From Candidatus Omnitrophota bacterium (lineage in GTDB: Bacteria > Omnitrophota > Gorgyraeia > Zapsychrales > Aceulaceae), in NCBI GenBank assembly GCA_028693815.1, contig JAQUUP010000015.1, positions 1 through 45,229 of the forward strand: a stretch of 45,229 nt of DNA. Direction: 5' to 3'. The translations under genes were made by a program, and so were the position numbers. Shown here in pieces: positions 1,396 through 28,385 of this stretch (the first letter of the stretch is position 1; each line of letters opens with the position of its first letter). The notes beneath the pieces are model-generated. The model was not told where the DNA came from. It worked only from the letters and a program-made list of their open reading frames with translations, and did not search any database.

Positions 1396-2502
1396 ATGCA
1401 GTATTGTAAAGAATGTCTGAATGTCTCTACTCGTCCACGAATTACGTTTAATGAAGATGGCGTGTGTAGCGCTTGTCAATGGGCGAGAAATAAAAAGGAA
1501 AGTATAGATTGGAAAAAAAGGTATAAAACTTTAGAAGAGTTATGCAATAAATATCGGTGTAATGATGGGTCAAATTGGGATGTGCTTGTTCCTTGTAGTG
1601 GGGGCAAAGATGGTTCATATGTTGCATGGAAATTGAAGCATGAATTTGGGATGCATCCTTTATGCGTAACATTGGTACCTCAGCTACAAACTGATTTAGG
1701 AAGAAAAAATTTAGAAAATTTTCAAAGATCAGGATTTGATCATATTTTAATAACACCGAACCTTCAAGTGTACAAAAAGCTTGCAATAAGAGGATTTAAG
1801 GAGCAGGGACGCCCTAAACTTCCGTTTGTAACAGGTGTAAGTACGGTCACCATTAAAACAGCTTTCAAGTTTAACGTTCCCTTTGTTATGTATGGCGAAG
1901 AAGGTGAAAGTGAATATGGAGGCGTGACTTCTCAATCAGTGGCACCAAAAATTACCAGAGATTATTTGGTTAACTATTATTATAGTGGGCATGATACAAC
2001 TGAATATTTGGATGAGTTTTCAAAGGATGATCTGAAGTGGTGGCTGCTTCCAACAGATGAAGAAATGCAAGATGTAGACCTTTTCCCAACACACTGGTCT
2101 CATTATGAAAACTGGAATCCTTATGAACATTATTTAATTGCAAAGAAACATTGTGGCTTAAAGACTTTAACTGATAGAAGCGTTGGAACTTACACAAATT
2201 TTGCACAACTAGATGATTATTTACAAGATTTACACGCTTACATAATGTTTCTTAAGTTTGGTTTTGGAAGAGTTACTTCCGATGTTTGTATCGACATACG
2301 AAGAGGGGCGTTGGATAGAAAACAAGCTCTCACGTTAATTAAAAGATATGATGGCGAATATCCGGAGGAATTAACACCACATTTTTTAAAATACTTTGAA
2401 ATGAATAGAGAAGAGTTTGAAGGTGTTCTTGACAAGTTCGCGAATAAAGATGTTCTTGAGAAGATTGAAGGTAAATGGAGATTAAAGGAAGATCCACATT
2501 AA
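1396..2502 (+). CDS. N-acetyl sugar amidotransferase (WbpG/PseA family)
   Basis: This 368-residue protein resembles the N-acetyl sugar amidotransferases WbpG and PseA/PtmG, which use ammonia from a HisH/HisF pair to turn an acetamido group into an acetamidino group. A four-cysteine zinc site is visible (C4, C7, C24, C27), followed by a PP-loop ATPase motif PCSGGKDG around residues 66-73. This is the adenylation signature, with Gly in place of the usual Ser in SGGKDS. The start at 1396 is chosen because it opens directly at the MQYCKEC zinc motif, with AGAGGAA just upstream; an in-frame extension to 1267 lacks homology. HisH-like and HisF-like genes follow immediately, which is the diagnostic operon arrangement. 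The likely substrate is a CMP- or UDP-linked diacetamido sugar, but this is inference. Confidence 0.9.
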   Translation: MQYCKECLNVSTRPRITFNEDGVCSACQWARNKKESIDWKKRYKTLEELCNKYRCNDGSNWDVLVPCSGGKDGSYVAWKLKHEFGMHPLCVTLVPQLQTDLGRKNLENFQRSGFDHILITPNLQVYKKLAIRGFKEQGRPKLPFVTGVSTVTIKTAFKFNVPFVMYGEEGESEYGGVTSQSVAPKITRDYLVNYYYSGHDTTEYLDEFSKDDLKWWLLPTDEEMQDVDLFPTHWSHYENWNPYEHYLIAKKHCGLKTLTDRSVGTYTNFAQLDDYLQDLHAYIMFLKFGFGRVTSDVCIDIRRGALDRKQALTLIKRYDGEYPEELTPHFLKYFEMNREEFEGVLDKFANKDVLEKIEGKWRLKEDPH

Positions 2503-2504
2503 TC

Positions 2505-3140
2505 ATGGGAAACAATAATATGATATCCATTGTAGATTATGGAATGGGTAATATTCGATCCGTTCGAAATGCCTTGGATTTTATTGGAGTCAAAAATAAG
2601 GTTATAGATTCTCCATCGAAAGTTTTAGCAAGTGAAAAACTTATTTTGCCTGGCGTAGGTTATTTTAGCGAGGCAATGAAAAATATACAGGCTAAAGGTC
2701 TTTTAAGCCCATTGAATGAAGCAGTTTTAGTAAGAAAAGTGCCTGTTCTTGGGATTTGTCTAGGCATGCACTTGTTGCTAAAAGAAAGTGAAGAGGGTGG
2801 GGCTACCAAGGGTTTTGGATGGATAGATGGTAAGGTCAAGCGTATTCCAGAAGCACCTTTGTTGAAAGTTCCTCATATTGGTTTCAATACAGTTTATTTT
2901 CAAAGGCCCTCTTTAGGTCTTTTTGAAAACTTGGGCGAACATTCTGATTTTTATTTTGCTCATTCTTATAGAGTTTTATGTGATGACGTTCAGACTGTTT
3001 CTGGATGGGTAGACTATGGGGATAGGTTTGCAGTAAGTATAGAAAAAAATAATATTTTTGGGACTCAATTTCATCCTGAAAAAAGTCAAAGTAATGGGCT
3101 TGCAGTGCTAAAGAATTTCTGTAAATTAAGAAAGAATTAG
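2505..3140 (+). CDS. HisH-like glutamine amidotransferase subunit
   Basis: This is a class I glutamine amidotransferase of the imidazole glycerol phosphate synthase HisH type, about 211 residues. The N-terminal IVDYGMGN motif, the nucleophile elbow GICLGMHL (Cys about residue 85) and the His-Glu pair in FHPEKS (about 190 and 192) complete the catalytic triad. It hydrolyses glutamine and channels ammonia to the HisF-like partner encoded 4 bp downstream. The context with the WbpG-like gene says it serves sugar amidination, not histidine synthesis; no other his genes are nearby. The start could be ATG 2505 or ATG 2520. I prefer 2505, three bases after the previous stop. Confidence 0.92.
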   Translation: MGNNNMISIVDYGMGNIRSVRNALDFIGVKNKVIDSPSKVLASEKLILPGVGYFSEAMKNIQAKGLLSPLNEAVLVRKVPVLGICLGMHLLLKESEEGGATKGFGWIDGKVKRIPEAPLLKVPHIGFNTVYFQRPSLGLFENLGEHSDFYFAHSYRVLCDDVQTVSGWVDYGDRFAVSIEKNNIFGTQFHPEKSQSNGLAVLKNFCKLRKN

Positions 3141-3144
3141 AGTT

Positions 3145-3963
3145 ATGGTAAAAAATCGTTTAATTTTTACTTTATTATCAGATAACGGAAATTATATGCT
3201 GAGTAGAAATTTTTCTCTTCAAAAAGTAGGGGATTTGAATTGGCTACGTGAGCATTATAATTTCGATGCGATTGCTTACTCCATAGATGAATTAATTCTT
3301 CTTAATGTTGCCAGAGAAGATAAAAATTTTAAGCAGTTTTCAGAAAACATAATGGAATTAGGTAAGCAATGCTTTATTCCTATTGTAGCAGGCGGGGGGA
3401 TCAGAAAATTAGAGGATGCATACTTGCTCATGAATTCTGGTGCAGATAAGCTTGTGGTAAATTCTCCTGTAACTACAGATCCAGCGCTAGTCAAGGCGTT
3501 GGTTAATATTTTCGGAAGTCAGTGTATAGTCGCCTCTATTGATTATTTTGTGACACAAGACAAGACAGAGGTTTATATTTCCAATGGTTCTAAAGCTACA
3601 GGTATGACGGTAGAGCAAGCTATAGAAAAAGCACAGGGCTTAGGATGTGGTGAGATATATTTAACTTCAATGGACAATGATGGTACAGGTGAAGGTTATG
3701 ATTTAGAGACAATTAAAAAGGCGAGCAGTTTTTCGAAAGTTCCAATAATTGTTTCAGGAGGAGCAGGCAAGTATGGACACTTAGCTGAGGGGATTGTTCA
3801 TGGAGGTGTTACTGCATCAGCTACAGCCAATCTTTTTAATTTTATGGCTGATGGATTAAGTGAGGCTAGGGATGTTATGAAGCAACGGGGCATAGAGATG
3901 GCTTCATGGGAAATTATATTGTCGAAAGAAAATGGGTTAATTGAAAAAGATAAAGTATATTAA
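3145..3963 (+). CDS. HisF-like synthase subunit paralogue for sugar amidation
   Basis: This is a 272-residue TIM barrel of the HisF family, with the phosphate-binding segments AGGGIRKLEDA and SGGAGKYGHL and the conserved LTSMDNDGTGEGYD loop. The N-terminal strand that carries the catalytic Asp (LD in true HisF, about residue 11) reads FTLLSDNG here, so the acid/base Asp appears replaced by Leu. This fits the divergent HisF copies of polysaccharide loci, which need only pass ammonia to the WbpG-type enzyme rather than carry out the imidazole cyclisation. It lies 4 bp after the HisH-like gene. Identity as a HisF paralogue is secure; the loss of histidine-pathway activity is inferred from the missing Asp. 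Confidence 0.9.
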   Translation: MVKNRLIFTLLSDNGNYMLSRNFSLQKVGDLNWLREHYNFDAIAYSIDELILLNVAREDKNFKQFSENIMELGKQCFIPIVAGGGIRKLEDAYLLMNSGADKLVVNSPVTTDPALVKALVNIFGSQCIVASIDYFVTQDKTEVYISNGSKATGMTVEQAIEKAQGLGCGEIYLTSMDNDGTGEGYDLETIKKASSFSKVPIIVSGGAGKYGHLAEGIVHGGVTASATANLFNFMADGLSEARDVMKQRGIEMASWEIILSKENGLIEKDKVY

Positions 3964-6428: not shown

Positions 6429-6989
6429 ATGTTGATGGAATATTATGAGAATATGAAAAAAGTTTTTGATGCTTTTGTTGACAGGTCTGAAAATTTAGAG
6501 AATATGGCCAAGGCAAAAGATATTCTTGAGAACACAAGAAAGGCTGGCAAATGTATTTATCTTATTGGCAATGGAGGGTCTGCTTCAGTAGCTGAGCATG
6601 TGGCCATTGATCTAACAAAAAATGCTGGTCTTCGTGCCACGGCTTTAAGTGGCGCGACCATGATAACAACGTTTTCTAATGATTATGGTTATGAAAATGT
6701 TTTTAAAAAGTATCTTGAATCATTTGCATTTGAAGATGATGTGTTGATTGCTATTAGCAGCAGTGGCTCATCGAAAAATATTGTTAACGCTTGCGATGAA
6801 GCGCGACGTAAGAGCATGCATGTTATCACACTTTCAGGGTTTAAAGGTGACAATCCTTTACGCATGAAAGGAGATATTAATTTTTGGGTTGAGACTGAGG
6901 CTTTTGGATTTTTAGAAATCTTGCATAGCTTGATTCTCCATTGGATAAATGATTCTATTATTGGCAAGGAAGTCTACATGATAAGGTGA
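6429..6989 (+). CDS. SIS-domain sugar isomerase, GmhA-like
   Basis: This 186-residue single SIS domain resembles phosphoheptose isomerase GmhA, which converts sedoheptulose 7-phosphate to D-glycero-D-manno-heptose 7-phosphate. The phosphate-binding stretch IGNGGSASVAEHVAIDL and the second loop ISSSGSSKNIVNA are intact, and the length matches GmhA (about 190). A strong AAGGAGG ribosome site precedes the ATG. A fresh Shine-Dalgarno and a 34-bp gap make this a likely new translational unit at the head of the oxidoreductase/cyclase run. No HddA kinase or HddC guanylyltransferase follows, so the product may feed the neighbouring cyclase or cytidylyltransferase rather than GDP-heptose. Substrate is inferred. 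Confidence 0.85.
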   Translation: MLMEYYENMKKVFDAFVDRSENLENMAKAKDILENTRKAGKCIYLIGNGGSASVAEHVAIDLTKNAGLRATALSGATMITTFSNDYGYENVFKKYLESFAFEDDVLIAISSSGSSKNIVNACDEARRKSMHVITLSGFKGDNPLRMKGDINFWVETEAFGFLEILHSLILHWINDSIIGKEVYMIR

Positions 6990-6992
6990 TTT

Positions 6993-7817
6993 ATGAAAAC
7001 TTACTTTAATACAAAGACATTTGATGCTTTTTTAAAGAAATCGCCGCTCGTGATTACGGATGATGTGAATGAAGCATCGCTGCTTGTGTTGGGGGCAAAA
7101 AAAATTGATTTTTCAGTTTTTCCGAAATTAAAAGCGGTTTACCGTTTTGGCGTAGGGCAAGAAAATGTCGATTTTAATTATTTAAAAAGCAGGGATGTGG
7201 CGATTCATTTTCCGGCGGAGGCTGTTAAAGATATCGTTTATGAAGGAACGGCAAACTTTACTGTTTTAGGGATTATGTCATTGATCTTTGACAATATTTG
7301 CGGAGATGCGGAAAGCTGGACCAAAGAAAAGCGCGTCTTTCTCAAAAATAGAAAGGCTCTGGTGATCGGCATGGGGCACATTGGACGAAAGGTATTTGAG
7401 AAATTATCAGTGTTCATGACTATGCAGTCATTTGATGTGTTGAAAAATTCTATGGATGAGCTTGAGCTACTTATTCGAGAGGCGGATGTCATTACAATCC
7501 ATATCCCATTGAATGATCAGACTAAGAATTTTTTTGATGAAGAAAAATTATCTTGGGTTAAAGAGGATGTGATTCTGGCTAATACGGCACGTGGTGATTT
7601 GTATAATGAAGGCGCTTTGTATAAGAAATTGACGCAAAGCAAATGCCGCGCATTTTTTGATGTGTTTTGGCAAGAGCCATATTCAGGAAAATTGAAAGAG
7701 CTCGGATATAAGAAATTCTTGATGACGCCTCATTCGGCCAGTAACACCAGAGACTTTGTTGAAAAAGGATTTTCAGAAATTCTTGAAATTGATAGGAGCT
7801 TGAAGCGTGATGGGTAA
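6993..7817 (+). CDS. D-isomer-specific 2-hydroxyacid dehydrogenase family protein
   Basis: This 274-residue NAD-dependent dehydrogenase has the family layout. The catalytic Arg region is YRFGVGQENVD. The Rossmann loop is VIGMGHIGRKV near residue 125. ADVITIHIPL and NTARGDLYNE follow, and the catalytic His lies in TPHSASN near residue 250. It is shorter than the usual 310-340 residues, mostly through a trimmed N-terminal substrate domain. It starts 3 bp after the isomerase gene and overlaps the next gene by 8 bp. The enzyme presumably oxidises or reduces a hydroxyacid or ketose intermediate of the sugar made by this run. Confidence 0.8.
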   Translation: MKTYFNTKTFDAFLKKSPLVITDDVNEASLLVLGAKKIDFSVFPKLKAVYRFGVGQENVDFNYLKSRDVAIHFPAEAVKDIVYEGTANFTVLGIMSLIFDNICGDAESWTKEKRVFLKNRKALVIGMGHIGRKVFEKLSVFMTMQSFDVLKNSMDELELLIREADVITIHIPLNDQTKNFFDEEKLSWVKEDVILANTARGDLYNEGALYKKLTQSKCRAFFDVFWQEPYSGKLKELGYKKFLMTPHSASNTRDFVEKGFSEILEIDRSLKRDG

Positions 7818-8808
7818 AACAATTAATTTTGGTATTGTTGGCTATGGAAAGATGGGGAAAATTCGCTATGAAACATTATCAGAGATGGACGGATGTTGTG
7901 TTAAGTCAATCTATGAGGCTGCAGAAGGGGTTGAGTTTCCTGAAGATGTAACGATTGCGAGATTTCCCGATGACATTTTTACAAATCCTGATATTGATGC
8001 GGTAGTGATTAGCACGCCGAATCATTTTATCAAAGAGTATGTTGTTAAAAGTTTAGAACAAGGCAAGCATGTATTTGCTGAAAAGCCTCCGGGAAGAGAC
8101 CTTGAGGAAGTTTGCGCTATGCGCGAGGCATTAAACAAAGCGAAGGATTCTAAGTTGATGTTTGGTTTTAATCATCGTCATCATGAAAGTATGATCAAGG
8201 CTAAAAGTCTTATTGATTCTGGGGAATATGGTAAAGTTTTATGGATGCGTGGGCGATATGGGAAAAGTGTGGATGATACTTTTTTTGGCAATTGGCGATC
8301 GAAAAAAGATTTGGCTGGCGGTGGCATTTTTTTGGACCAGGGTATTCATATGCTGGATTTGTTTTTAATGTTCTGCAAGGATTTTGACGAAGTGAAGGCC
8401 CTTGTATCGAATTTATATTGGCATCTGGATATTGAAGATAATGTCTTTGCCATTTTTCATAATAAAGAAGGACAGGTTGCGTCTTTACATTCTACGATGA
8501 CCCAATGGCGTCATATTTTTTCGCTAGAGATTTTTTTGGAACACGGATATATGACGATCAATGGATTGAAAACAAGTTCAAACAGCTATGGGGATGAGAT
8601 TTTGACTGTAGCCAAAAACAGAAGTCTTCCGCCGGCAGCTAGTTGGACGGATGAAGAAAAACATGCTTATCATGTGGATACGTCCTGGAAAACTGAATTA
8701 GAAATTTTTGTCGACGCTGTGGCCAACAATAAAGATATTTCTGTGGGCAGCATTGATGATGCGGTAAAGTTAATGACCTTAGTGGAAAAAGTTTATGCTC
8801 AACAATAG
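7810..8808 (+). CDS. Gfo/Idh/MocA family oxidoreductase
   Basis: This 332-residue NAD(P)-dependent oxidoreductase has the N-terminal Rossmann motif GIVGYGKMGKIR, the hallmark Lys in AEKPPGRDL near residue 95, and the C-terminal GGGIFLDQGIHMLDL segment that carries the catalytic Asp-His of the Gfo/Idh/MocA fold. The start is set at ATG 7810, preceded by TAGGAGC; the GTG one codon earlier is less likely. It overlaps the previous gene by 8 bp and the next by 14 bp, so translation is probably coupled. A role in oxidising or reducing a ring or chain carbon of the sugar nucleotide precursor is inferred from context. Confidence 0.87.
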   Translation: MGKTINFGIVGYGKMGKIRYETLSEMDGCCVKSIYEAAEGVEFPEDVTIARFPDDIFTNPDIDAVVISTPNHFIKEYVVKSLEQGKHVFAEKPPGRDLEEVCAMREALNKAKDSKLMFGFNHRHHESMIKAKSLIDSGEYGKVLWMRGRYGKSVDDTFFGNWRSKKDLAGGGIFLDQGIHMLDLFLMFCKDFDEVKALVSNLYWHLDIEDNVFAIFHNKEGQVASLHSTMTQWRHIFSLEIFLEHGYMTINGLKTSSNSYGDEILTVAKNRSLPPAASWTDEEKHAYHVDTSWKTELEIFVDAVANNKDISVGSIDDAVKLMTLVEKVYAQQ

Positions 8809-9526
8809 TTTGAATAATCTTACAGTTTTAGTGACTGGTGGAACGCGTGGCATTGGATGTGCCATTGTTGAAGTCTTCCTCGATCAGGGTGCAACGGTGA
8901 TTTATACCGGTATCAAAAAGGAGGATCCAAACAAGAATAATCGTGCGAAATATGTTCAGTTGGATTTTTGTTCGGATGAAAGCGTCGCTCAGGCATTAGA
9001 AACAATTTTATCTCATCATCGTATTGATATTTTGATCAATAATGCAGGAATTAATATTATTGAGCCTATTGATCAACTTAAAGAAGAGCATTGGGATCGT
9101 ATTTTTAAAGTTAATTTGAAAGGAAGTGCTTGGCTCATCAAAGAGTTTTCTAGGCATATGATTGATCAGGGGATTAAAGGAAAAGTTCTCAATATCAGTT
9201 CAATTTTCGGAGTAGTTTCCAGGGCGAAGCGAGCGAGCTATTCATCTTCAAAATCAGGGATATTGGGGTTAACTCGGGCATCTGCCTTGGATTTGGCACC
9301 GCATCAAATCTTGGTGAATGCATTGTCGCCGGGGTTTACAGATACTGAATTAACGCGCGAAGTTTTAGGTGAAGAGGGAATGAGGGAGTTGGCTCAGCAA
9401 ATTCCTCTTAAACGTTGTGCTGATGTTAAAGAAATTGCTCACTGGGCATTGTTTTTATGCTCGCCGCATAATTCTTATATAACGGGTCAGAATTTTGTTG
9501 TTGACGGAGGGTTTATTATTCAATGA
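8795..9526 (+). CDS. SDR family oxidoreductase (first of tandem pair)
   Basis: This 243-residue short-chain dehydrogenase has the cofactor motif TGGTRGIG, the NNAG motif at about residue 80, and the catalytic Ser-Tyr-Lys in ISSIF and YSSSKSG. The C-terminal GQNFVVDGG is the classic SDR (FabG-like) ending. It is the first of two adjacent SDRs that are alike in length and in their last residues (GGFIIQ and GGYIIQ), which suggests a local duplication. It overlaps the upstream gene by 14 bp and the second SDR by 4 bp (ATGA). The pair likely act on successive carbons of one intermediate, but their substrates are unknown. Confidence 0.88.
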   Translation: MLNNSLNNLTVLVTGGTRGIGCAIVEVFLDQGATVIYTGIKKEDPNKNNRAKYVQLDFCSDESVAQALETILSHHRIDILINNAGINIIEPIDQLKEEHWDRIFKVNLKGSAWLIKEFSRHMIDQGIKGKVLNISSIFGVVSRAKRASYSSSKSGILGLTRASALDLAPHQILVNALSPGFTDTELTREVLGEEGMRELAQQIPLKRCADVKEIAHWALFLCSPHNSYITGQNFVVDGGFIIQ

Positions 9527-10251
9527 GTACGTTAGATTTTAATAATAAGACAGTTTTGGTGACCGGCGCAAGCCGAGGAATTGGTCAATTTGTGGCACGT
9601 AAGTTTCATGAGCTTGGAGCAGATCTGATTTTAACGGCAACAGCGCTAACCAGCTTTGAAGGCATGATTCCTGATGCTGAACAGCATGCTCTTGATTTTA
9701 CTGATCAGGCCTCTGTTGAGGTTTTTATAAAGGTTCTTGATGGGAAAAAAGTTGATGTTTTGGTCAATAATGCTGGGATTCATTCTTTGCAAGCGGTTGG
9801 AGAGATGGACTCTGAAACATTTGATAAAATTTGCCGTGTAAATCTTTGGGGTGCGGCAGTGTTGTGTAACGCAGTGGCCAAAGGAATGAAAGAGAGAAAG
9901 GGCGGGCGTATTGTTAATGTTAGTTCTATTGCAGCGATGGTCTCAAAACCTGGTTCTGGAGCTTATTCTGCGTCTAAGGCAGGGCTGTTGGGATTTACTC
10001 GATCTTGCGCTCTTGATATGGCACCGTTTAATGTATTGGTTAATGCGGTTTGCCCTGGGACAACACAAACAGATATGGTTGAGAATATTTTAAGTGATGA
10101 GCAAAAGAAAAGAATTATTAGTCATGTTCCTTTAAAACGATTAGGCAATCCTAAGGAGGTTGCGGAGCTAATTGTTTTCTTGTGTTCTGATTTAAACACC
10201 TATATGACAGGGCAGTCATTAATTATCGATGGAGGATATATAATACAATGA
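9523..10251 (+). CDS. SDR family oxidoreductase (second of tandem pair)
   Basis: This 242-residue SDR has TGASRGIG, NNAG at about residue 83, catalytic Ser in SSIAAM and YSASKAG, and the terminal GQSLIIDGGYIIQ. It overlaps the first SDR and the downstream cyclase gene by four bases each (ATGA), so all three are translated as a coupled set. It is homologous to its upstream neighbour, and both resemble FabG/PtmA-type enzymes used in nonulosonic acid and other sugar pathways. The duplication implies two distinct redox steps or a heteromeric enzyme. Confidence 0.88.
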   Translation: MSTLDFNNKTVLVTGASRGIGQFVARKFHELGADLILTATALTSFEGMIPDAEQHALDFTDQASVEVFIKVLDGKKVDVLVNNAGIHSLQAVGEMDSETFDKICRVNLWGAAVLCNAVAKGMKERKGGRIVNVSSIAAMVSKPGSGAYSASKAGLLGFTRSCALDMAPFNVLVNAVCPGTTQTDMVENILSDEQKKRIISHVPLKRLGNPKEVAELIVFLCSDLNTYMTGQSLIIDGGYIIQ

Positions 10252-11336
10252 AAATAGAGTCACGTGTAAAAAATTATGATGTGGAGATGGCTGATGCCAT
10301 TTTGCAAAATAAGCAGATGCTGCTTGATGGGTTTTCCTGCAGCAATGAATTTTATTTTATTGATGAAAATGTTTATAAGATTTATCAGAAGGAAATTGAT
10401 GTCTTTACGCAAGGGGCTAAGATTCTGGTTATCGAGGCGCATGAAACTAATAAAGAATACATTAAACTTGCTGAGTATTATTCATGGCTCATTGAGCACC
10501 AATTTACGCGTAAAGATGTTTTGATCACAATTGGCGGAGGAATTTTACAGGACATAAGTGGGTTTATCGCCTCAACCCTTTATCGCGGCATGAAGTGGAT
10601 TTTTTTACCAACAACATTGCTTGCTCAGGCGGATAGCTGTATTGGGTCGAAAACATCTATTAATTTCAAAGATAGTAAAAATTTGATCGGATCGTTTTAT
10701 CCTCCAGACCGTATTTTTATAGATTCAGCCTTTTGCAAAACGCTTACACCGGAATATTTTAATAGTGGCGTTGGAGAGGTAATCAAATTTCATTTGTTGT
10801 CTAATCAAGAGGGATATAAAAAATTAAAGACTTATATTTTTGCAAAAGATGGGCATGAGTCTCAATTGCTTAAAGATATTATTTGGTCAACGTTGAATAT
10901 TAAGCGATCTTATTTTGAAGAAGATGAATTTGATACTGATAGAAGAAATCTATTAAATTACGGACATTGTTTTGGTCATGCGTTAGAGTCAGCTAGTCAT
11001 TTTGAGGTGTGTCATGGAGAGGGCGTACTAGTCGGGATGTCTTTTGCGGATTTGTTATCTTTGAAAAGAGGCGCGATGTCGCAGTCTTTATATGGTGAGT
11101 TTCAGAAAATTTATGAAGGCCATTACCCGGATTTTGATTTAAGCACTATTGCTGCCGAAGAGATTGTTAAATACTTAAAAAAAGATAAGAAACGTGTTGG
11201 CAAGGATCTAACGATGGTTATCGGAGAAGATATTGGTAAATTTCATAAGTGCGACAATATCACTGAAGATGAAGTTCACAAAGTGTATCAGGAATTTTTA
11301 GTGAAATGGCAAACGTATAGAAAGTTGGACTCATGA
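10248..11336 (+). CDS. Dehydroquinate-synthase-family sugar phosphate cyclase
   Basis: This 362-residue protein is clearly of the AroB superfamily. It has GGGILQD (about 96-102), RGMKWIFLPTTLLAQADS (113-130), KNLIGSFYPP (144-153), the metal/substrate motif GEVIK (176-180), and NYGHCFGHALE and CHGEGV with the metal-binding His residues. The segment that reads DSSVGGK in AroB is DSCIGSK here, and no other shikimate genes surround it. Its neighbours are a GmhA-like isomerase, oxidoreductases and a cytidylyltransferase. The superfamily also contains 2-epi-5-epi-valiolone and 2-deoxy-scyllo-inosose synthases, so a carbocyclic or modified sugar product is plausible. Fold and metal site are seen; the substrate is inferred. 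Confidence 0.82.
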   Translation: MKIESRVKNYDVEMADAILQNKQMLLDGFSCSNEFYFIDENVYKIYQKEIDVFTQGAKILVIEAHETNKEYIKLAEYYSWLIEHQFTRKDVLITIGGGILQDISGFIASTLYRGMKWIFLPTTLLAQADSCIGSKTSINFKDSKNLIGSFYPPDRIFIDSAFCKTLTPEYFNSGVGEVIKFHLLSNQEGYKKLKTYIFAKDGHESQLLKDIIWSTLNIKRSYFEEDEFDTDRRNLLNYGHCFGHALESASHFEVCHGEGVLVGMSFADLLSLKRGAMSQSLYGEFQKIYEGHYPDFDLSTIAAEEIVKYLKKDKKRVGKDLTMVIGEDIGKFHKCDNITEDEVHKVYQEFLVKWQTYRKLDS

Positions 11337-12478
11337 GTAGAATAATTGCTATGATCCCCGCCCGATTAGGAAGCAAGCGAGTGCCGCGTAAGAATTTGAG
11401 GTATCTCGCTGGAAAGCCATTGATCTGTCATTGTATCGAAACGGCTAAGGACAGCGGAGTTTTTGATGAGATTTATATTAATTCCGAGGCGGAAATTTTT
11501 GCTCAAATAGCACAGGAGAGTGGTATCAGTTTTTATAAGCGAGATGAAAAATTTTCGACCGATCAGACGAATAATGATGAATTTGCGCATGATTTTATTC
11601 AAAATACCGATGGAGATATTTTAGTCCAGATTTTACCAACATCGCCGCTTATTACGGCTGAGGAGATTCGGAATTTTGTGGTGATGATGACTGAAAAAAA
11701 ATATGAAACTTGCGTGTCTGTTGTGCCGCATCAAATTGCTTGTGTTTATGAGGGTGAATCTGTTAATTTTTCTTATGAAGAGGCACATCGCTCGTCTCAG
11801 ACCATGTCGGCAGTGTGTTCTTATGCAACCGTGCTGATGGGGTGGACATATGAGAGCTTTAAACGCAATATCAAGGAAAAAGGGTTTGCGTATCATGGAG
11901 AGAAAGGTAAGATTGGTTTTTTTCCGATTACAGGATTATCTACTATTGATATTGACCATGAAGAAGACTTTCAATTAGCTGAAGCGGCTATGGTGTATAG
12001 ATCTATGAGCCAGCAGAATAAGATTCCTAAGTATTATGGTGATGATCAAAATGAAAGCTTGCGTTCAGAGGTGGATGTGCCAACGATCTTGAAAAAAGAT
12101 GGAGTCAATAAAAGTAATTTTGAACAAGAGAATACATTTTTGATCAACATTGATCATATCATTAAAAATTATGATAACACGCAGTCTTGGTGTCATAGAT
12201 TAGTTAATACAGAAAATAATTCAGCTACGTTGATCTCGCAGATGCCTGGAGAAGGTAATCGTCGACATTTTCATCCGGATTGGAATGAATGGTGGTATAT
12301 TTTGCGAGGGCAGTGGAAATGGGAGATTGAAGGCAAGGAGCATGTTGTTAAAGAGGGAGATGTTATTTTTATTCCTAAGGGGAAATGGCATTGCATTATA
12401 GCGATTGGTGATGAGCCTGCGATTCGCTTGGCTGTTAGTCGGGCCGATGTTGCCCATGTTTATAAGGGGGATACATGA
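11333..12478 (+). CDS. CMP-sugar cytidylyltransferase fused to a C-terminal cupin
   Basis: The N-terminal 225 residues are a CMP-acylneuraminate/KDO synthetase-like domain, with MIPARLGSKRVPRKN at the start and QILPTSPL near residue 102. A linker of about 60 residues leads to a cupin (about 285-375), with the metal-site motifs HFHPDWNEW (about 312-320) and KGKWHCI (about 349-355). The domain order implies that one polypeptide both activates a sugar with CMP and isomerises, epimerises or binds it through the cupin. It overlaps the cyclase and YhcH-like genes by four bases each. Residues such as the P-loop-like RLGSKR are intact, so it should be active. Which sugar is used is unknown; a nonulosonic or carbocyclic acid fits the locus. 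Confidence 0.85.
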   Translation: MSRIIAMIPARLGSKRVPRKNLRYLAGKPLICHCIETAKDSGVFDEIYINSEAEIFAQIAQESGISFYKRDEKFSTDQTNNDEFAHDFIQNTDGDILVQILPTSPLITAEEIRNFVVMMTEKKYETCVSVVPHQIACVYEGESVNFSYEEAHRSSQTMSAVCSYATVLMGWTYESFKRNIKEKGFAYHGEKGKIGFFPITGLSTIDIDHEEDFQLAEAAMVYRSMSQQNKIPKYYGDDQNESLRSEVDVPTILKKDGVNKSNFEQENTFLINIDHIIKNYDNTQSWCHRLVNTENNSATLISQMPGEGNRRHFHPDWNEWWYILRGQWKWEIEGKEHVVKEGDVIFIPKGKWHCIIAIGDEPAIRLAVSRADVAHVYKGDT

Positions 12479-12930
12479 TATTTGATTCTTTAGATCGATT
12501 AAATTTATATGAGAGCATTCCAAGGAGTAAGGAGATTGTTGAGTTTCTGAATGCGAATGATTTTCTTAATCTGGAGTTGGGAGATCGTAAAATTATTGGG
12601 GATGATTTGATTGCAAAGGTCATGGAATATGAAACTAAGCCTCATGAGGAACTTTTTTTTGAAACTCACGACCACCATATTGACGTGCAAGTGATGTTGA
12701 GTGGTGGGGAAGTGATGCAGGTTATAAATACGGAGCACCTCATTCCTGCGCAAGGTCCGGATATTCAAGGGGATTTTCATTTTTATAAGCCGAATGGGCC
12801 GTTTTCTTCTATTTATGTGGCCAAAAGATTCTTTACAGTCTTTTTTCCATGGGATGCTCATCGCCCAGGATGCTCACTTGATCAAAATAAGACTGTTAAA
12901 AAAGTGGTATTTAAAATCAAAATAGTCTAG
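12475..12930 (+). CDS. YhcH/YjgK/YiaL family protein (NanQ-like anomerase)
   Basis: This 151-residue cupin-like beta-barrel belongs to the YhcH/YjgK/YiaL (DUF386) family. Recognisable parts are the N-terminal MIFDSLDRL, the central HDHHIDVQVMLSG, and the C-terminal FFPWDAHRPG with metal-binding residues. In E. coli, YhcH (NanQ) speeds up anomer conversion of N-acetylneuraminate. Here it follows a cytidylyltransferase, whose family uses the beta anomer, so it may supply the right anomer for CMP activation. It overlaps the upstream gene by four bases. The family call is firm, and the anomerase role is carried over from NanQ. Confidence 0.85.
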   Translation: MIFDSLDRLNLYESIPRSKEIVEFLNANDFLNLELGDRKIIGDDLIAKVMEYETKPHEELFFETHDHHIDVQVMLSGGEVMQVINTEHLIPAQGPDIQGDFHFYKPNGPFSSIYVAKRFFTVFFPWDAHRPGCSLDQNKTVKKVVFKIKIV

Positions 12931-14243: not shown

Positions 14244-15763
14244 AGCAGTTGATTTTTAAAAATACATTTTTTTGCGGCCTATCAACCTTTGTTATTGGCT
14301 TGACGGGGTTGTTTTTGTTGCCTTTTATGATTATTAAATTGGGGGCTGAGCAGTATGGCCTTATCGCTATTGTTTATATTTTTACAATGAATGGCTATAT
14401 CAATCTTTTTGAGTTGGGATTTCAGGGTGGAGTAGCGCGTTATGTGGCTAAATATAAAGAAGAGCAGAATGTTCAGGGTCTATTTTCAGTAACCATTTCT
14501 TCGTTTGCGATTTTTCTTGCTTTAGGTGTTGTTTTATTAGCTGTTTCTTTTTTGTTTAAAGGCTTTTTAGTTGATCTTTTTAAGATTCCAGCGTTGTATG
14601 CAAGCTCAGTATCTACTGTCTTGGGATGGGTATTTTTATCTTATTTGTTTGTCTTTCCTTCAGTTGTCTTTATGGGTTATTTTCAAGGGTTGCAGCGATA
14701 TGATGTTTTAAAAATTACTGAAATCGTAACTTATTTGAGCTATGCTCTGGGCACCTTTTTTTATCTGAATAGCGGCGGTAGTAATTTTCAAATGATTTTA
14801 TATTTTTTTCTTATTTCTTTATTTTTTCGTTTTGTGACATACGGGGTATTTTTTGTGTTTGATTTTTCTCAGTCTGGGGCTCGGGTCTTGTTCGACAAAG
14901 AGGAGGTGGCTAAAGTCTGGGGGATGGCAAAATATTTGTTTGCTGGAAAGCCCGCGAGCATGCTCTATCATAACGCCCCTCGTTTAATGGTGGCCATTTT
15001 TTTAGGACCTGTTGCGATGACAGGCTATGAGATAGTTATGAAGATTCCTCGTTTTTTAAAGAGTGGGTTAGGTTTTTTAAACAGCGCGGTGATGCCTGTT
15101 GCTAGCACTTTAGAAGCAAGAGGGGATCAGGTTAGATTAAAAAAGCTGTTTTTGTGCGGATTTAAGTATCAGTTTCTTTTTCTTTTGCCGGCCTTGAGCG
15201 TTTGTTTTCTTTTCTCCAGAGAAATTCTTCACTTCTGGATGCCGGCTGAATATGAGCACTTATTTCCTTTGTTGCGGATTATGTTTGTTTGGAATCTTTT
15301 GGCGCCCCTGGTTGCTTATAGTAATTCGATTATGACAGGTATGGAGCGAAAGCTTAAGCTTATGGCATTTTGGGTTTGGGGCGTTGTTCTTATTTCGACT
15401 TTATTTATTGTGCTGACGATTCATTGGTGGGGTCTGTATTCAGCGGTTATTGGTTATCTTTTAGGAACAGTTTTGTGGATTCCATTTATTGCTATTTGGA
15501 CCTGTAGGGAGACGGGGTCATCTTCGACTGAATTTTTCTTAATTTTAGGAAATGGATTGAAATATGTTTTTATACCATTAACATTGTATGTAATATTTCG
15601 ACATTTTTTAAGCAATATTGTTTTGGTTGCCTTGTTTGCAGTATTGTGCATGGCAAGTTATTTTGTTGTGTTATTTTATAAATACTTAACTCAAGAAGAG
15701 CGAGGGTTCATAGTGAGCCTTTTACCGATGTCTGCTGAGAATTATTTTCGAGGACGGAAATGA
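14240..15763 (+). CDS. Wzx-type oligosaccharide flippase
   Basis: This 507-residue protein is almost wholly hydrophobic with a dozen or more predicted membrane helices. It has the N-terminal signature FVIGLTGLFLLPFMIIKLGAE and the conserved GFQGGVARYVAKY loop typical of the polysaccharide transporter (MOP/PST) family. It would flip lipid-linked repeat units across the inner membrane. The start is TTG 14240 with GGGAGAGAGG immediately upstream, overlapping the previous stop by four bases; it overlaps the NeuA-like gene at the other end. Wzx sequences are specific to the repeat unit, so this gene belongs with the sugars of this locus. Confidence 0.88.
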   Translation: MKQLIFKNTFFCGLSTFVIGLTGLFLLPFMIIKLGAEQYGLIAIVYIFTMNGYINLFELGFQGGVARYVAKYKEEQNVQGLFSVTISSFAIFLALGVVLLAVSFLFKGFLVDLFKIPALYASSVSTVLGWVFLSYLFVFPSVVFMGYFQGLQRYDVLKITEIVTYLSYALGTFFYLNSGGSNFQMILYFFLISLFFRFVTYGVFFVFDFSQSGARVLFDKEEVAKVWGMAKYLFAGKPASMLYHNAPRLMVAIFLGPVAMTGYEIVMKIPRFLKSGLGFLNSAVMPVASTLEARGDQVRLKKLFLCGFKYQFLFLLPALSVCFLFSREILHFWMPAEYEHLFPLLRIMFVWNLLAPLVAYSNSIMTGMERKLKLMAFWVWGVVLISTLFIVLTIHWWGLYSAVIGYLLGTVLWIPFIAIWTCRETGSSSTEFFLILGNGLKYVFIPLTLYVIFRHFLSNIVLVALFAVLCMASYFVVLFYKYLTQEERGFIVSLLPMSAENYFRGRK

Positions 15764-16452
15764 AAACAGTTGCTATTATCCCTGCGCGAGGAGGAAGCAA
15801 GGGAATCAAAAATAAGAATATTATTGAAGTGGCAGGAAAGCCGCTGGTTGTGTGGTCGATTGAGCAGGCACTTCAGTCAAAAAGCATTGAGGCTGTTTTT
15901 GTAACAACTGATGATGAAAAAATAGCTGAAATTTCTGAGAAGGCAGGGGCGAAAGTTATAAAAAGGCCGGAGGAGTTATCATTAGACACAGCCACTTCAG
16001 AAGCTGCGTTGTTACATGCGATTAATGTTATTGAAGAGGATTTACAGATAGATTTTGAGATAGTTGTATTTTTACAGGCGACATCGCCGGTTCGCGAAAG
16101 TTTGGACATTGATCATGCGTTTGAAAAATTTAACAGAGAAAATCTGGATTCTTTGTTCTCCTGCTGTAAAGTAGAGGACAGGTTTGTATGGGAAAAGCAG
16201 GGCGAGGACTATCAAAGCATTACATATGATTACCGTAACCGTCAGCGCCGTCAGGATATCAAGCCCAGATTTTTGGAGAACGGCTCGATCTATATTTTTA
16301 AAAAGGATATTCTGCGTCAAACCAGTAACCGGCTGGGCGGAAAGATCGGCATATATGAAATGCCCTTCTGGAAGTCGTTTCAGATCGATAAGGAAGAGGA
16401 TATCGATATTTGTGAATATTATCTGAATAGGCTGTGTCAGAAAAATGGATAA
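15760..16452 (+). CDS. neuA: NeuA-like acylneuraminate cytidylyltransferase
   Basis: This 230-residue enzyme has the full CMP-nonulosonate synthetase pattern: IIPARGGSKGIKNKN at residues 6-20, FLQATSPVR near 106-114, and RRQDIKPRFLENGSIYIF near 161-178. It is a stand-alone domain, unlike the cupin fusion at 11333. Together with the NeuB-like enzyme at 18237 it should make and activate a sialic, legionaminic or pseudaminic type acid. The gene overlaps the flippase by four bases and the next SDR by eight. Base composition rises in GC at about 16190, within the gene, which hints at a recombination junction. Exact substrate is not readable. Confidence 0.9.
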   Translation: MKTVAIIPARGGSKGIKNKNIIEVAGKPLVVWSIEQALQSKSIEAVFVTTDDEKIAEISEKAGAKVIKRPEELSLDTATSEAALLHAINVIEEDLQIDFEIVVFLQATSPVRESLDIDHAFEKFNRENLDSLFSCCKVEDRFVWEKQGEDYQSITYDYRNRQRRQDIKPRFLENGSIYIFKKDILRQTSNRLGGKIGIYEMPFWKSFQIDKEEDIDICEYYLNRLCQKNG

Positions 16453-17284
16453 GAAAATGACGAACTTTTTTGACCTAACAGGAAAAACGATTTTCATCAC
16501 AGGGGCAACCGGATTTTTCGGCAAGTATATCTCAGAGGCAATGCTTGAGGCTGGTGGGAATGTCATCCTTTTGGGCAGGTCAAAAAAGGTGACGGCCTTT
16601 GTTGGCCAATGTAATGAAAAATATGGATCAGGAAGAGCGACTGGTTTTCTTCAAGATATGTATGATCTGGAAGGGTTAGAGAAGCTTCTGCAAACCATTG
16701 CGCAAGATTTTGATATTGACGCGATCATTAATAATGCTTATGACCTTGGTAAAAAAACCGGGTTCAATTCCAAAGAATCCTGGTTCGAGAATTTAGATCA
16801 TCAGACATGGAAAAATGCTTTTGAAAGCGGCATATATTGGAGTGTCTTGACTATAAAGATTATTGGGGAAACATTCAAAAAGAAAAAGGCAGGAAGTATT
16901 ATTAATATCAGCTCGATGTATGCCACGGTTTCGCCCGATCCCGGCCTTTATGAAGGAACGGATTTTATGAATCCGGCCACGTACGGCGTCAACAAATCCG
17001 GTATTTTGGCTTTTACAAGATATATTGCCTCTTTTTGGGGAAAATATAATATACGATGTAATGCTGTTGTGCCTGGTGCGTTTCCAAATCTAGAAACGGA
17101 AACAGAGAACAGCGTTAGTGACGACAATGATTTTTTTATTGAACGGCTTAAAGAAAAAACAGTATTAAAAAGGGTTGGGCATCCTAAGGATCTGGTCGGG
17201 ACATTTATTTTTCTTGTTTCAGATGCCTCGAGTTATATGACGGGCCAGTCTATTGTTATTGATGGCGGTTGGACGATAAAATAG
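16445..17284 (+). CDS. SDR family oxidoreductase, PtmA-like
   Basis: This 279-residue SDR has the cofactor motif TGATGFFGKYI, NNAYDLG at about 95, Ser in ISSMYATVSP, and catalytic YGVNKSG, ending in GQSIVIDGGWTIK. Placement between NeuA- and NeuB-like genes resembles ptmA, the SDR of legionaminic acid and flagellin-glycan loci. It contains a longer mid-section (KESWFENLDHQTW) than plain FabG-type SDRs. Overlap with neuA is eight bases. It sits in the stretch of higher GC that runs to about 18180. The redox step on the nonulosonic acid or its precursor is inferred. Confidence 0.85.
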   Translation: MDKKMTNFFDLTGKTIFITGATGFFGKYISEAMLEAGGNVILLGRSKKVTAFVGQCNEKYGSGRATGFLQDMYDLEGLEKLLQTIAQDFDIDAIINNAYDLGKKTGFNSKESWFENLDHQTWKNAFESGIYWSVLTIKIIGETFKKKKAGSIINISSMYATVSPDPGLYEGTDFMNPATYGVNKSGILAFTRYIASFWGKYNIRCNAVVPGAFPNLETETENSVSDDNDFFIERLKEKTVLKRVGHPKDLVGTFIFLVSDASSYMTGQSIVIDGGWTIK

Positions 17285-17304
17285 TCATGATGTAAGGAGT
17301 TGTA

Positions 17305-18177
17305 ATGAAAAAATGTTTTAATGGATTAACAACGGTGAACGTTGAATTGACCAGCAGATGCAATAAAGAATGCTGGATGTGCGGACGTCGAAAGGTCGAT
17401 AAGGATTATCCGGAAATCGCCATGAATTACGGCGATATGGATTTTGTGCTTGTTGAAAAAATTGCCGCTCAGTTACCGGAGAATATTGTTGTGCAACTAC
17501 ATAATAATGGTGAGCCGCTGCTGTATCCACGGTTTAAAGAAGCCGCACAGCTTTTTGCTCGGCAGATCACCAATTTTGATACAAATGGAAAGCTTTTAGT
17601 TGAAAAGGCCGATGAGATCATTGATGTGGTAGATACGATGGCCATTTCTGTTTTTGAAAATGACGAGGAAGCGGATGAACAGTATGAAATCATCGAAAAG
17701 TTCTTAAAAATAAAAGGCGAGAGGAAACCGTATGCCATCTTGAGAATTAACGGAGATGTTGATGTCAAACGGTATGAAAAATTCGGGCTTGTGATGGCGT
17801 CGCGTGTTCTACATGCCCCTATGGGAAGCTTTAATTATAAAAAGGCCGAGCCCACGGTGCCTGAGGTGGGTATCTGCCTGGATTTTTTAAACCATATGGC
17901 GATTGATCGGAATGGGGAGGTCTCGATCTGTGTGCGGTTTGATCCCAAACGGCTGGGAGTGATCGGGGATGCAAATAAACAAAGTTTGTTTGATATCTGG
18001 AACGGCGAACAACGGATGAAGTGGCTTGAATTGCACAAGAAAGGTAAAAGGAAGGATATTCCGTTGTGTTCGTATTGTCATTTTTGGGGTGTGCCCACAG
18101 GCAGAGGAAACGCGGTTCATAATGTTAAAGAAAAGGTTGATGATTCAGATGTTGTTAATAAACAAAGGGCTGAGTAG
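17305..18177 (+). CDS. Radical SAM protein with SPASM-like C-terminus
   Basis: This 290-residue protein has the radical SAM cluster motif SRCNKECWMCGRR (C19, C23, C26) and the early LHNNGEPLLYPRF 'GGE-like' segment. It has a C-terminal Cys set (C192, CVRFD, LCSYCHFWG) that looks like a SPASM/twitch auxiliary cluster region with the typical motif MAIDRNGEVSIC. A GTAAGGAG ribosome site lies just before the ATG. It lies between the SDR and NeuB-like genes, so it may modify the nonulosonic sugar, for example by deoxygenation, epimerisation or dehydrogenation. Radical SAM identity is firm; the reaction is unknown. Confidence 0.83.
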   Translation: MKKCFNGLTTVNVELTSRCNKECWMCGRRKVDKDYPEIAMNYGDMDFVLVEKIAAQLPENIVVQLHNNGEPLLYPRFKEAAQLFARQITNFDTNGKLLVEKADEIIDVVDTMAISVFENDEEADEQYEIIEKFLKIKGERKPYAILRINGDVDVKRYEKFGLVMASRVLHAPMGSFNYKKAEPTVPEVGICLDFLNHMAIDRNGEVSICVRFDPKRLGVIGDANKQSLFDIWNGEQRMKWLELHKKGKRKDIPLCSYCHFWGVPTGRGNAVHNVKEKVDDSDVVNKQRAE

Positions 18178-18236
18178 TGCAGTCTGTTTAAAGATGTGTT
18201 GAGGAATGCAAGTTGAAAAAGGAAAAGGAGAGTTAT

Positions 18237-19082
18237 ATGTGGGAAAAAGAAAAAATTTTTATTATTGCGGAGATCGGCATCAATCATAACGGGGACCTGT
18301 CTATAGCAAAAAAACTTATTGATATGGCAAAAGAATGCGGTTGCGATGCAGTAAAATTTCAAAAGCGTACGATTGATATTGTCTATACAAAAGAATTGCT
18401 GGATTCTCCTAGAGAAAGTCCCTGGGGAAACACTCAAAGAGAGCAGAAAGAAGGATTGGAGTTCGGAAAAGAAGAATATGATGAAATAGACAGGTATTGT
18501 AAAGAAAAAGGCATTATCTGGTTTGCTTCAGCATGGGATCTTGAAAGCCAGAAATTCTTAAAGCAGTATGATTTAAAATACAATAAAGTCGCGTCGGCGA
18601 TGTTGACGCACTATGACTTGTTAGAGATGATCGCGCAGGAGAAAAAACACACGTTCATTTCTTGCGGGATGAGTGATTGGGGGATGATCGATAAAGCCTT
18701 GGAGGTCTTTGAGAAGAAGGGTTGTGTGTATACATTGCTTCATTGCGTTTCTACTTATCCTTCGGATGATGAGGAATGCAATTTAAACGCAATAAAAACG
18801 CTGAAAAAGAAATATGGATGTGAGGTAGGATATAGCGGGCACGAGCGAGGGGTTTTACCCTCTATTTTGGCTGTTGCCGCTGGCGCTGTGGTTCTCGAGA
18901 GGCACGTTACTCTCGATAGGACTATGTATGGCAGTGATCAGGCGGCATCACTTGAACATAGGGGTTTAGAGCTTCTTGTAAGAGATGCACGTAGGGTTAA
19001 GGATATTTTAGGTGATGGAAATAAGGCTGTTTCTGAGAAGGAAGCATCAATCGCGAAAAAGTTACGATATTATGAGGAATGA
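18237..19082 (+). CDS. neuB: NeuB-like nonulosonate synthase lacking the SAF domain
   Basis: This protein of about 281 residues matches the TIM barrel of sialic/legionaminic/pseudaminic acid synthases: AEIGINHNGDL, DAVKFQKRT, ISCGMSDWG, LLHCVSTYP, YSGHERGV and ERHVTLDRTMYGSDQAAS. Such enzymes condense phosphoenolpyruvate with an N-acetylhexosamine-type sugar. Usual length is about 340-350 because of a C-terminal antifreeze-like SAF domain, but this protein stops right after the barrel (KKLRYYEE). The start is ATG 18237, with AAAGGAGAG seven bases before, in preference to TTG 18213. It overlaps the next gene by 11 bp. No NeuC/LegG epimerase or LegBC genes are in the window. Confidence 0.9.
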   Translation: MWEKEKIFIIAEIGINHNGDLSIAKKLIDMAKECGCDAVKFQKRTIDIVYTKELLDSPRESPWGNTQREQKEGLEFGKEEYDEIDRYCKEKGIIWFASAWDLESQKFLKQYDLKYNKVASAMLTHYDLLEMIAQEKKHTFISCGMSDWGMIDKALEVFEKKGCVYTLLHCVSTYPSDDEECNLNAIKTLKKKYGCEVGYSGHERGVLPSILAVAAGAVVLERHVTLDRTMYGSDQAASLEHRGLELLVRDARRVKDILGDGNKAVSEKEASIAKKLRYYEE

Positions 19083-25477: not shown

Positions 25478-25613
25478 AGCGGGTTAAAGGATAAGGGGTA
25501 AAGTCCTAAGTCTGAGGTCGGAAAAAGACAAAGGACGTGAGACGTGAAGCGGGAAAAGTATTTAGCATATAGTATTTGGTATATAGTATGTAGCATGTAG
25601 TATATGGTATGTA
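25446..25613 (+). repeat. Phased heptad repeat array R4, longest
   Basis: Twenty-four 7-bp units can be read in one phase over 168 bp. They begin with purine-rich units inside the ATPase reading frame (GGGAAGT, GGGGGAC, GCGGGAA), pass through GTGAAAA, GTGAAGC, GGGTTAA, GTGAGAC, GTGAAGC and GGGAAAA, and end in eight GTATNTR/GCATNTA units. Nothing else is visible in the gap before the HipB operator. Confidence 0.78.
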
Positions 25614-25645
25614 GATTTGTGTATGAATTCATCTGAGATTAATAG

Positions 25646-25659
25646 TTACCTATCGGTAA
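25646..25659 (+). promoter_or_regulatory. HipB-type operator, distal site
   Basis: TTACCTATCGGTAA has 5-bp inverted arms around a 4-base centre and lies just before the -35 of the hipBA promoter. A second related site lies at 25696. Paired palindromes flanking a promoter are typical of HipB autorepression. Confidence 0.55.
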
Positions 25660-25666
25660 TTTTATC

Positions 25667-25694
25667 TTGCTTTTTTAATTTTATATGCTATATT
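25667..25694 (+). promoter_or_regulatory. Sigma70-type promoter for hipBA
   Basis: The -35 TTGCTT (25667-25672) and the extended -10 TGC-TATATT (25686-25694) are separated by 16 bp. Transcription would start near 25701, leaving a short leader with a GAGGG ribosome site before the ATG at 25714. Confidence 0.55.
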
Positions 25695-25695
25695 A

Positions 25696-25709
25696 TTACC
25701 GAGAGGGAA
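25696..25709 (+). promoter_or_regulatory. HipB-type operator, proximal site
   Basis: TTACCGAGAGGGAA shares the TTACC half-site and a degenerate GGxAA half with the site 50 bp upstream. It covers the expected transcription start and ribosome site, so a bound repressor would block both. Confidence 0.4.
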
Positions 25710-25713
25710 TACT

Positions 25714-25950
25714 ATGATTGAGCTTATAAAAAATACAAAACAATTAGGTCAGGTTATTCGCAAGAGACGCAAAGAGTTGAAGCTAACTCAGAAAGAAGTA
25801 AGCGATCTCTGTAACACTGGTAATCGCTTTATTTCCGAGCTTGAAAATGGTAAGCCAACTGTTCAGCTTGAGAAAGTATTAAAAATTATCAATGCTCTTG
25901 GTTTAGAAGTTCAAATTGTGCATAAAGGGTTTGAGACATGGAAAAGTTAA
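25714..25950 (+). CDS. hipB: HipB-like XRE family antitoxin/repressor
   Basis: This 78-residue helix-turn-helix protein has an RKRRKELKLTQKEVSDLC ... RFISELENGK pattern (about residues 15-50), which is the XRE/Cro fold. The C-terminal strand LGLEVQIVHKG resembles the HipB dimerisation strand. It overlaps the hipA start by 13 bp, the standard antitoxin-first arrangement. It should dimerise, bind the two palindromes just upstream, and hold HipA inactive. Confidence 0.9.
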   Translation: MIELIKNTKQLGQVIRKRRKELKLTQKEVSDLCNTGNRFISELENGKPTVQLEKVLKIINALGLEVQIVHKGFETWKS

Positions 25951-27161: not shown

Positions 27162-27200
27162 CGAGGATGTTGAGAGGGTGAAAGATTTTTGACAAAATGA

Positions 27201-27256: not shown

Positions 27257-27289
27257 GATTAAAGGATTTATAGAGATAAAGAAATTCTT

Positions 27290-28327: not shown

Positions 28328-28333
28328 AATAGA

Positions 28334-28375: not shown

Positions 28376-28385
28376 TAATAAGAAT

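What the first reader, a model, noticed from the sequence alone, without database searches (positions are those of the whole stretch)
6429..12930. Putative pathway to a CMP-activated carbocyclic or otherwise novel sugar
An isomerase acting on sedoheptulose-type sugars, a dehydroquinate-synthase-family cyclase, two SDRs, a Gfo/Idh enzyme, a hydroxyacid dehydrogenase, a CMP-transferase and an anomerase-like protein are coupled in one run. Sedoheptulose 7-phosphate is the substrate of valiolone-type cyclases, so a carbasugar in a bacterial surface glycan is a testable idea. The set does not match the legionaminic, pseudaminic or GDP-heptose pathways.
Basis: partly seen in the sequence, partly recalled or inferred. 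Interest (0 to 1): 0.75.

Follow-up and report, generated by a model that had tools for sequence, protein, structure and literature searches.

The report
Conserved cyclase-to-CMP sugar gene cassette
Eight tightly packed genes in an uncultured bacterium look like an assembly line for an unknown, probably ring-shaped, acidic surface sugar; variants of the cassette occur in many unrelated bacteria, and I found no description of what it makes.

Summary
Window 6429-12930 holds eight co-directional genes that touch or overlap: SIS isomerase, 2-hydroxyacid dehydrogenase, Gfo/Idh, two SDRs, a dehydroquinate-synthase-family cyclase, a CMP-transferase fused to a cupin, and a YhcH-type protein. The cyclase is not the cell's AroB: a true AroB lies elsewhere in the genome, and grouping the window cyclase with AroB is rejected (p=0.0005). 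It belongs to the uncharacterised NCBIfam clade TIGR04425. Relatives from many phyla almost always have an SDR directly upstream, and sit in two mutually exclusive settings. Type A has a TPP enzyme plus an HpcH- or NeuB-like protein. Type B, the window's, has CMP-transferase, Gfo/Idh, SIS and 2-hydroxyacid dehydrogenase. All 14 dehydroquinate-synthase active-site residues are kept (one varies in 9 relatives), whereas known sedoheptulose-7-phosphate cyclases have lost several. The SIS protein departs from GmhA at two active-site positions in every cassette copy examined. Best reading: an oxidised, carboxylate-bearing sugar phosphate is cyclised, reduced and CMP-activated for a surface glycan. 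Reaction order and product are inferred. Novelty: a new, uncharacterised variant of the sugar-phosphate-cyclase kind.

The parts
6429..6989 (+). SIS-domain sugar-phosphate isomerase, a variant subfamily (Asp and Glu where GmhA has Glu65 and Gln172)
6993..7817 (+). D-2-hydroxyacid dehydrogenase (PGDH/PdxB-like) with intact Arg-Glu-His triad
7807..8808 (+). Gfo/Idh/MocA dehydrogenase with EKPPGR and DQGIH motifs largely conserved in cassette copies
8795..9526 (+). SDR oxidoreductase 1 (YxxxK motif present)
9523..10251 (+). SDR oxidoreductase 2; an SDR lies directly upstream of the cyclase in 78 of 84 loci examined
10248..11336 (+). dehydroquinate-synthase-family cyclase of the TIGR04425 clade; all 14 DHQS active-site residues kept
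11333..12478 (+). CMP-transferase (PseF/NeuA-like, residues 5-218) fused to a cupin domain (about residues 295-372)
12475..12930 (+). YhcH/DUF386 protein, related to the N-acetylneuraminate anomerase family (94 bits, below its cut-off of 160)
15760..16452 (+). second CMP-transferase, possibly for a separate ulosonic acid
   Evidence: the block 15760-19082 recurs after the cyclase in L040
18213..19082 (+). NeuB-family synthase (PEP condensation); link to the cassette uncertain

Best explanation
The operon makes a CMP-activated acidic sugar unit for a surface polysaccharide, and its skeleton is formed by a dehydroquinate-synthase-type cyclisation of a carboxylate-bearing (2-ulosonate-type) 7-carbon sugar phosphate rather than of sedoheptulose 7-phosphate. 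Proposed order, all inferred: the SIS protein makes an aldose phosphate; the Gfo/Idh enzyme oxidises it to an aldonate phosphate; the 2-hydroxyacid dehydrogenase oxidises C2 to give an ulosonate phosphate; the cyclase eliminates phosphate and closes a cyclohexane ring (a hydroxylated dehydroquinate-like acid); the adjacent SDR reduces the ring ketone; the KdsB/NeuA-type CMP-transferase activates the hydroxyl next to the carboxylate. Shown here: the gene set, its conservation, the clade, the conserved active site and the presence of separate housekeeping AroB, KdsA, KdsB and GmhA-like genes. Not shown: any substrate, product or reaction order.
For: TIGR04425 score 398 bits (cut-off 400) against 285 for aroB (cut-off 305). 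One fully supported clade apart from AroB, EEVS, DDGS, Ebo and DOIS; grouping with AroB rejected, p-AU 0.0005. All 14 DHQS active-site positions kept in the window protein and in 80 relatives, except one position (Lys197 of A. nidulans) that is His in 9 type-B members; S7P cyclases differ at positions 250, 268 and 275, and DOIS at 264 and 268. Type B set (CMP-transferase, Gfo/Idh, SIS, 2-HADH, SDR, cyclase, not every member in every locus) in about 30 loci from many phyla, with no overlap with the type A set. None of 27 AroB loci has any of these partners within 1.5 kb. Cassette-specific SIS residues in 19 of 19 loci. Two relatives that carry cassette CMP-transferases have a separate canonical KdsB. 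2-HADH, DHQS-type cyclases and KdsB/NeuA-type transferases all act on alpha-oxygenated carboxylates (established knowledge).
Against: CMP-transferases of this family normally activate an anomeric hemiketal hydroxyl; a saturated carbocycle has none, so glycosyl transfer from such a CMP ester is chemically doubtful. The YhcH protein (also in L093 and L097) hints at an ulosonic acid that still has an anomeric carbon. About half of type B loci also carry an HpcH aldolase that this route does not use. Which residues contact the carboxylate rests on my knowledge of DHQS structures, not on a test here. Active-site conservation could reflect descent from AroB rather than substrate.
Confidence: 0.4

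Rival explanations
1. One reading: the cyclase converts sedoheptulose 7-phosphate to a valiolone-type C7 cyclitol that is then reduced and CMP-activated as a carbasugar.
For: Same superfamily; Gfo/Idh and SDR enzymes would fit cyclitol modification; the SIS protein's closest solved relatives are phosphoheptose isomerases.
Against: The S7P-cyclase substitutions at positions 250, 268 and 275 are absent in all TIGR04425 members examined. The tree does not place the clade within the S7P-cyclase group. No cyclitol kinase or glucose-1-phosphate-adenylyltransferase-like enzyme in the cassette, unlike acarbose and validamycin (PMC9200736). The SIS protein is not canonical GmhA.
Confidence: 0.15
2. The cyclase, SDR, Gfo/Idh, SIS and 2-HADH make a (possibly carbocyclic) aldehyde or acid building block; a pyruvate aldolase (HpcH) or NeuB then extends it to a true 3-deoxy-2-ulosonic acid with an anomeric carbon, and that is what the CMP-transferase activates.
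For: HpcH of the HpaI/GarL type sits in about half of type B loci and NeuB in the window and L040; a YhcH anomerase-like protein is in the window, L093 and L097; it avoids the chemical problem of a non-anomeric CMP ester.
Against: No HpcH or NeuB is linked in the other type B loci; the window genome has no clear HpcH aldolase; the window NeuB block may belong to a separate ulosonic acid.
Confidence: 0.25
3. The cyclase is a redundant dehydroquinate synthase that feeds a quinate- or shikimate-like decoration; the other genes serve a different sugar.
For: Complete conservation of the DHQS active site in the window protein; DHQS enzymes are the closest solved folds.
Against: Long, fully supported separate branch; about ten clade-diagnostic residues, several next to catalytic ones; tight linkage to the same partners across phyla; host has AroB and DAHP synthase already.
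Confidence: 0.12

Closest known systems
NCBIfam TIGR04425, AroB-related putative sugar phosphate phospholyase (cyclizing)
   Same: Window cyclase scores 398 bits, far above its aroB score; one relative (G053) passes the cut-off of 400
   Different: Just below the curated cut-off; the family is a hypothetical equivalog without known substrate, so the name is itself a prediction
3-dehydroquinate synthase (AroB)
   Same: Fold (TM-score about 0.86) and all 14 active-site residues
   Different: Separate clade, clade-diagnostic residues, different operon, second copy beside a true AroB
C7-cyclitol pathways (EEVS: ValA, AcbC; DDGS; EVS)
   Same: Sugar phosphate cyclase superfamily; cyclisation plus redox plus nucleotidyl activation
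   Different: S7P-cyclase fingerprint absent; no cyclitol kinase; nucleotidyltransferase of the KdsB/NeuA kind rather than the AcbR/ValB kind
Ebo cluster (EboD)
   Same: Uncharacterised DHQS-like clade in a conserved multi-phylum operon (PMC5133447)
   Different: EboD-like proteins have different active-site residues and entirely different partners
CMP-Kdo, CMP-sialate and CMP-pseudaminate pathways
   Same: CMP-transferase, YhcH-like anomerase, NeuB nearby
   Different: Those pathways have no DHQS-type cyclase, Gfo/Idh plus 2-HADH pair or coupled SDRs
Caryose and bradyrhizose, known carbocyclic or bicyclic monosaccharides of bacterial polysaccharides (PMC9671505)
   Same: Precedent that surface polysaccharides contain carbocyclic sugars
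   Different: No link to this cassette was found in the papers searched

Membership tests
TIGR04425 | HMM score at or above the cut-off of 400 bits | tested here: inconclusive
   398.3 bits; clade membership supported by tree
TIGR04425 | groups with other TIGR04425-like proteins to the exclusion of AroB | tested here: met
   fully supported branch; AU test against AroB p 0.0005
AroB (3-dehydroquinate synthase) | TIGR01357 score above 305 bits | tested here: not met
   285.0 bits for the window; 365.8 for the own-genome AroB on C7
AroB (3-dehydroquinate synthase) | 14 DHQS active-site residues | tested here: met
AroB (3-dehydroquinate synthase) | makes dehydroquinate from DAHP | not testable with these tools
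   needs enzyme assay
Sedoheptulose-7-phosphate cyclase (EEVS/DDGS/EVS) | substitutions at positions 250, 268 and 275 of DHQS numbering | tested here: not met
   window has K, N, H; EEVS M, D, P; DDGS M, A, P; no EVS sequence was in the comparison
2-deoxy-scyllo-inosose synthase | Gly and Glu at positions 264 and 268 (from the single solved enzyme BtrC) | tested here: not met
   window has R and N
GmhA (sedoheptulose 7-phosphate isomerase) | equivalog score above cut-off and active-site Glu65, Gln172, His180 | tested here: not met
   99-107 bits against 209-265; Asp, Glu, His in the window
CMP-ulosonate transferase (KdsB/NeuA/PseF) | CTP_transf_3 domain | tested here: met
   88.7 bits against cut-off 22.6; below the PseF and KdsB equivalog cut-offs

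The most novel reading that the evidence does not exclude
A widespread, undescribed pathway builds a carbocyclic sugar acid (a quinate-like analogue of Kdo) by oxidising an aldose phosphate to a 2-ulosonate phosphate, cyclising it with a dehydroquinate-synthase relative and activating it as a CMP ester for bacterial surface glycans.
Probability: 0.2. Interest if true: 0.85.

Novelty: new variant of a known kind. Interest (0 to 1): 0.62.

Why it matters
It would add a branch with a new substrate class to the sugar phosphate cyclases and give a function to a gene set whose members score as relatives of AroB, phosphoheptose isomerase and Kdo cytidylyltransferase but are not those enzymes. If carbocyclic acids are common in bacterial surface glycans, structure surveys would have to look for them. 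The clean two-module arrangement (type A and type B around one SDR-cyclase core) makes the question testable with a few purified enzymes.

Tried and rejected
Own AroB: rejected. S7P/valiolone cyclase: disfavoured by active-site residues and tree. Canonical GmhA: rejected. Cassette CMP-transferase as the cell's Kdo enzyme: rejected, because KdsB and KdsA lie together on C24 and relatives G053 and G035 also have both kinds. Literature searches for the cassette, for TIGR04425 and for a dehydroquinate-synthase homologue in polysaccharide loci gave nothing relevant; the key fingerprint papers (Wu 2007, Kean 2014, Osborn 2017) are not held. The plasmid search listed only distant relatives (at most about 37% identity): AroB, S7P cyclases and Ebo-like proteins where annotated. 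A second AU test, of the clade against the S7P-cyclase side, did not finish.

Full report
Observation. Eight ORFs lie head to tail on the + strand between 6429 and 12930, with gaps or overlaps of +3, -11, -14, -4, -4, -4 and -4 bases. Pfam assigns SIS_2, 2-hydroxyacid dehydrogenase, Gfo/Idh, SDR, SDR, DHQ_synthase with DHQS_C, CTP_transf_3 with a C-terminal cupin, and DUF386 (YhcH), all far above cut-off. The surroundings are a polysaccharide locus: a flippase, a Capsule_synth-type protein, a family-2 glycosyltransferase, a NeuB synthase and HisH/HisF-like proteins.

The cyclase is not AroB. It scores 285 bits to the aroB model (cut-off 305) and 398 to TIGR04425 (cut-off 400), a hypothetical equivalog named AroB-related putative sugar phosphate phospholyase (cyclizing). 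The same genome has a second family member on contig C7 that scores 365.8 to aroB. In a 74-protein tree, TIGR04425-like proteins form one fully supported clade with a long stem, apart from AroB (including the own AroB), EEVS, DDGS, Ebo and DOIS. Forcing the window protein into the AroB clade costs 85.5 log units (p-AU 0.0005). The AlphaFold model is confident (pLDDT 94.6) and its nearest solved structures are DHQS enzymes.

But the sedoheptulose argument fails. I aligned the window protein, 80 TIGR04425-like proteins, 17 AroB-family proteins and reference or annotated S7P cyclases, DOIS and Ebo-like proteins, and read off 14 DHQS active-site positions. TIGR04425 members keep all 14, apart from A. 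nidulans Lys197, which is His in nine type-B members. EEVS-type proteins have Met, Asp and Pro at positions 250, 268 and 275; DDGS has Met, Ala and Pro; DOIS has Gly and Glu at 264 and 268; Ebo-like proteins have His at 250 and Asp at 268. His275 takes part in proton transfer during C5 oxidation in DHQS (PMC7144000). That Lys250 and Arg264 hold the DAHP carboxylate, and the A. nidulans numbering used here, are my knowledge of the DHQS literature and were not tested. I infer a substrate with a carboxylate, a 2-ulosonate 7-phosphate. Since DAHP itself would only duplicate AroB, and since about ten clade-diagnostic residues separate the clade from AroB, several next to catalytic ones (C131, S137, G176, N234), the substrate is probably not DAHP.

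Conservation of the cassette. A scan of genomes of 84,980 species gave 80 loci with relatives (the search keeps only the best 80 and starts from the window's family, so the sample is biased). In 78 of 84 examined loci an SDR lies directly upstream, usually overlapping by a few bases. The neighbourhoods fall into two sets with no overlap: type A, 49 loci, TPP enzyme and/or an HpcH-like or NeuB-like protein; type B, 32 loci (30 distinct), with 2-HADH or Gfo/Idh, mostly together with a KdsB- or NeuA-like CMP-transferase and often SIS and an HpaI-like aldolase. Type B loci come from eleven named phyla (metagenome bins can be misassigned). Of 27 AroB loci, none has any of these partners within 1.5 kb, so the association is not a general feature of the superfamily. 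Type B occurs in three places in the tree, which suggests that the SDR-cyclase pair and the partner set have been recombined.

The partners are themselves special. Cassette SIS proteins have Asp and Glu where GmhA proteins, including the GmhA-like one on C7 of this genome, have Glu65 and Gln172 (20 of 20 against 3 of 3). The 2-HADH keeps its Arg-Glu-His triad in 32 of 32 and the Gfo/Idh its EKP motif in 28 of 29. The host has its own KdsB with KdsA on C24, DAHP synthase on C30 and a GmhA-like protein on C7 (named from sequence and position), and G053 and G035 have a canonical KdsB besides the cassette one. The cassette is thus an extra pathway, not a relocated housekeeping one.

Mechanism. The 2-HADH, a DHQS-type cyclase and a KdsB/NeuA-type transferase all handle alpha-oxygenated carboxylates. 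A coherent order is aldose phosphate (SIS), aldonate phosphate (Gfo/Idh), 2-ulosonate phosphate (2-HADH), carbocyclic keto acid (cyclase), reduced acid (SDR), CMP ester (CMP-transferase). Only the genes are shown; every reaction is inferred. The weak point is the last step: without an anomeric carbon the CMP ester would be a poor glycosyl donor. The YhcH protein and the aldolases support a rival in which the cassette feeds a true 3-deoxy-2-ulosonic acid. I put 0.4 on a carboxylated cyclase substrate leading to a CMP-activated unit, 0.25 on the aldolase rival, 0.15 on S7P and 0.12 on redundant AroB.

Origin.

Prior knowledge. TIGR04425 shows that the cyclase family was noticed before; I found no paper describing it, the cassette or its product in the held library, and subscription papers are mostly missing. 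Known carbocyclic or bicyclic polysaccharide sugars are caryose and bradyrhizose (PMC9671505). Acarbose-type pathways use an S7P cyclase, cyclitol kinases and an AcbR/ValB nucleotidyltransferase (PMC9200736), and the cassette lacks the last two.

Noticed in passing
window 1402-3963: Amidotransferase triad next to the cassette: a WbpG-like protein (assigned by eye, no Pfam match) with HisH-like and HisF-like partners, as in loci that add acetamidino groups to sugars.
   Followed up: no
window 15760-19082: Second CMP-transferase, SDR, SPASM radical SAM protein and NeuB in a row; the same block follows the cyclase in L040, so it may be linked to the cassette or make a second ulosonic acid.
   Followed up: partly
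window 24134-31190: Two DUF4143 AAA ATPases, two HipA-domain proteins and a DUF1016-SNase protein between two polysaccharide stretches.
   Followed up: no
L043-L102, type A loci: A second uncharacterised module: acetolactate-synthase-like TPP enzyme plus an HpcH-like or NeuB-like protein (apparently interchangeable), SDR and the TIGR04425 cyclase, often with a family-2 glycosyltransferase and GtrA.
   Followed up: partly
type B cyclases, 9 of 30 sequences (e.g. L033, L034): DHQS Lys197 equivalent replaced by His, possibly a second substrate specificity within the clade.
   Followed up: no
L037, L048: Cassette loci in bins labelled archaeal (Thermoplasmatales, Micrarchaeota); could be transfer or bin contamination.
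   Followed up: no
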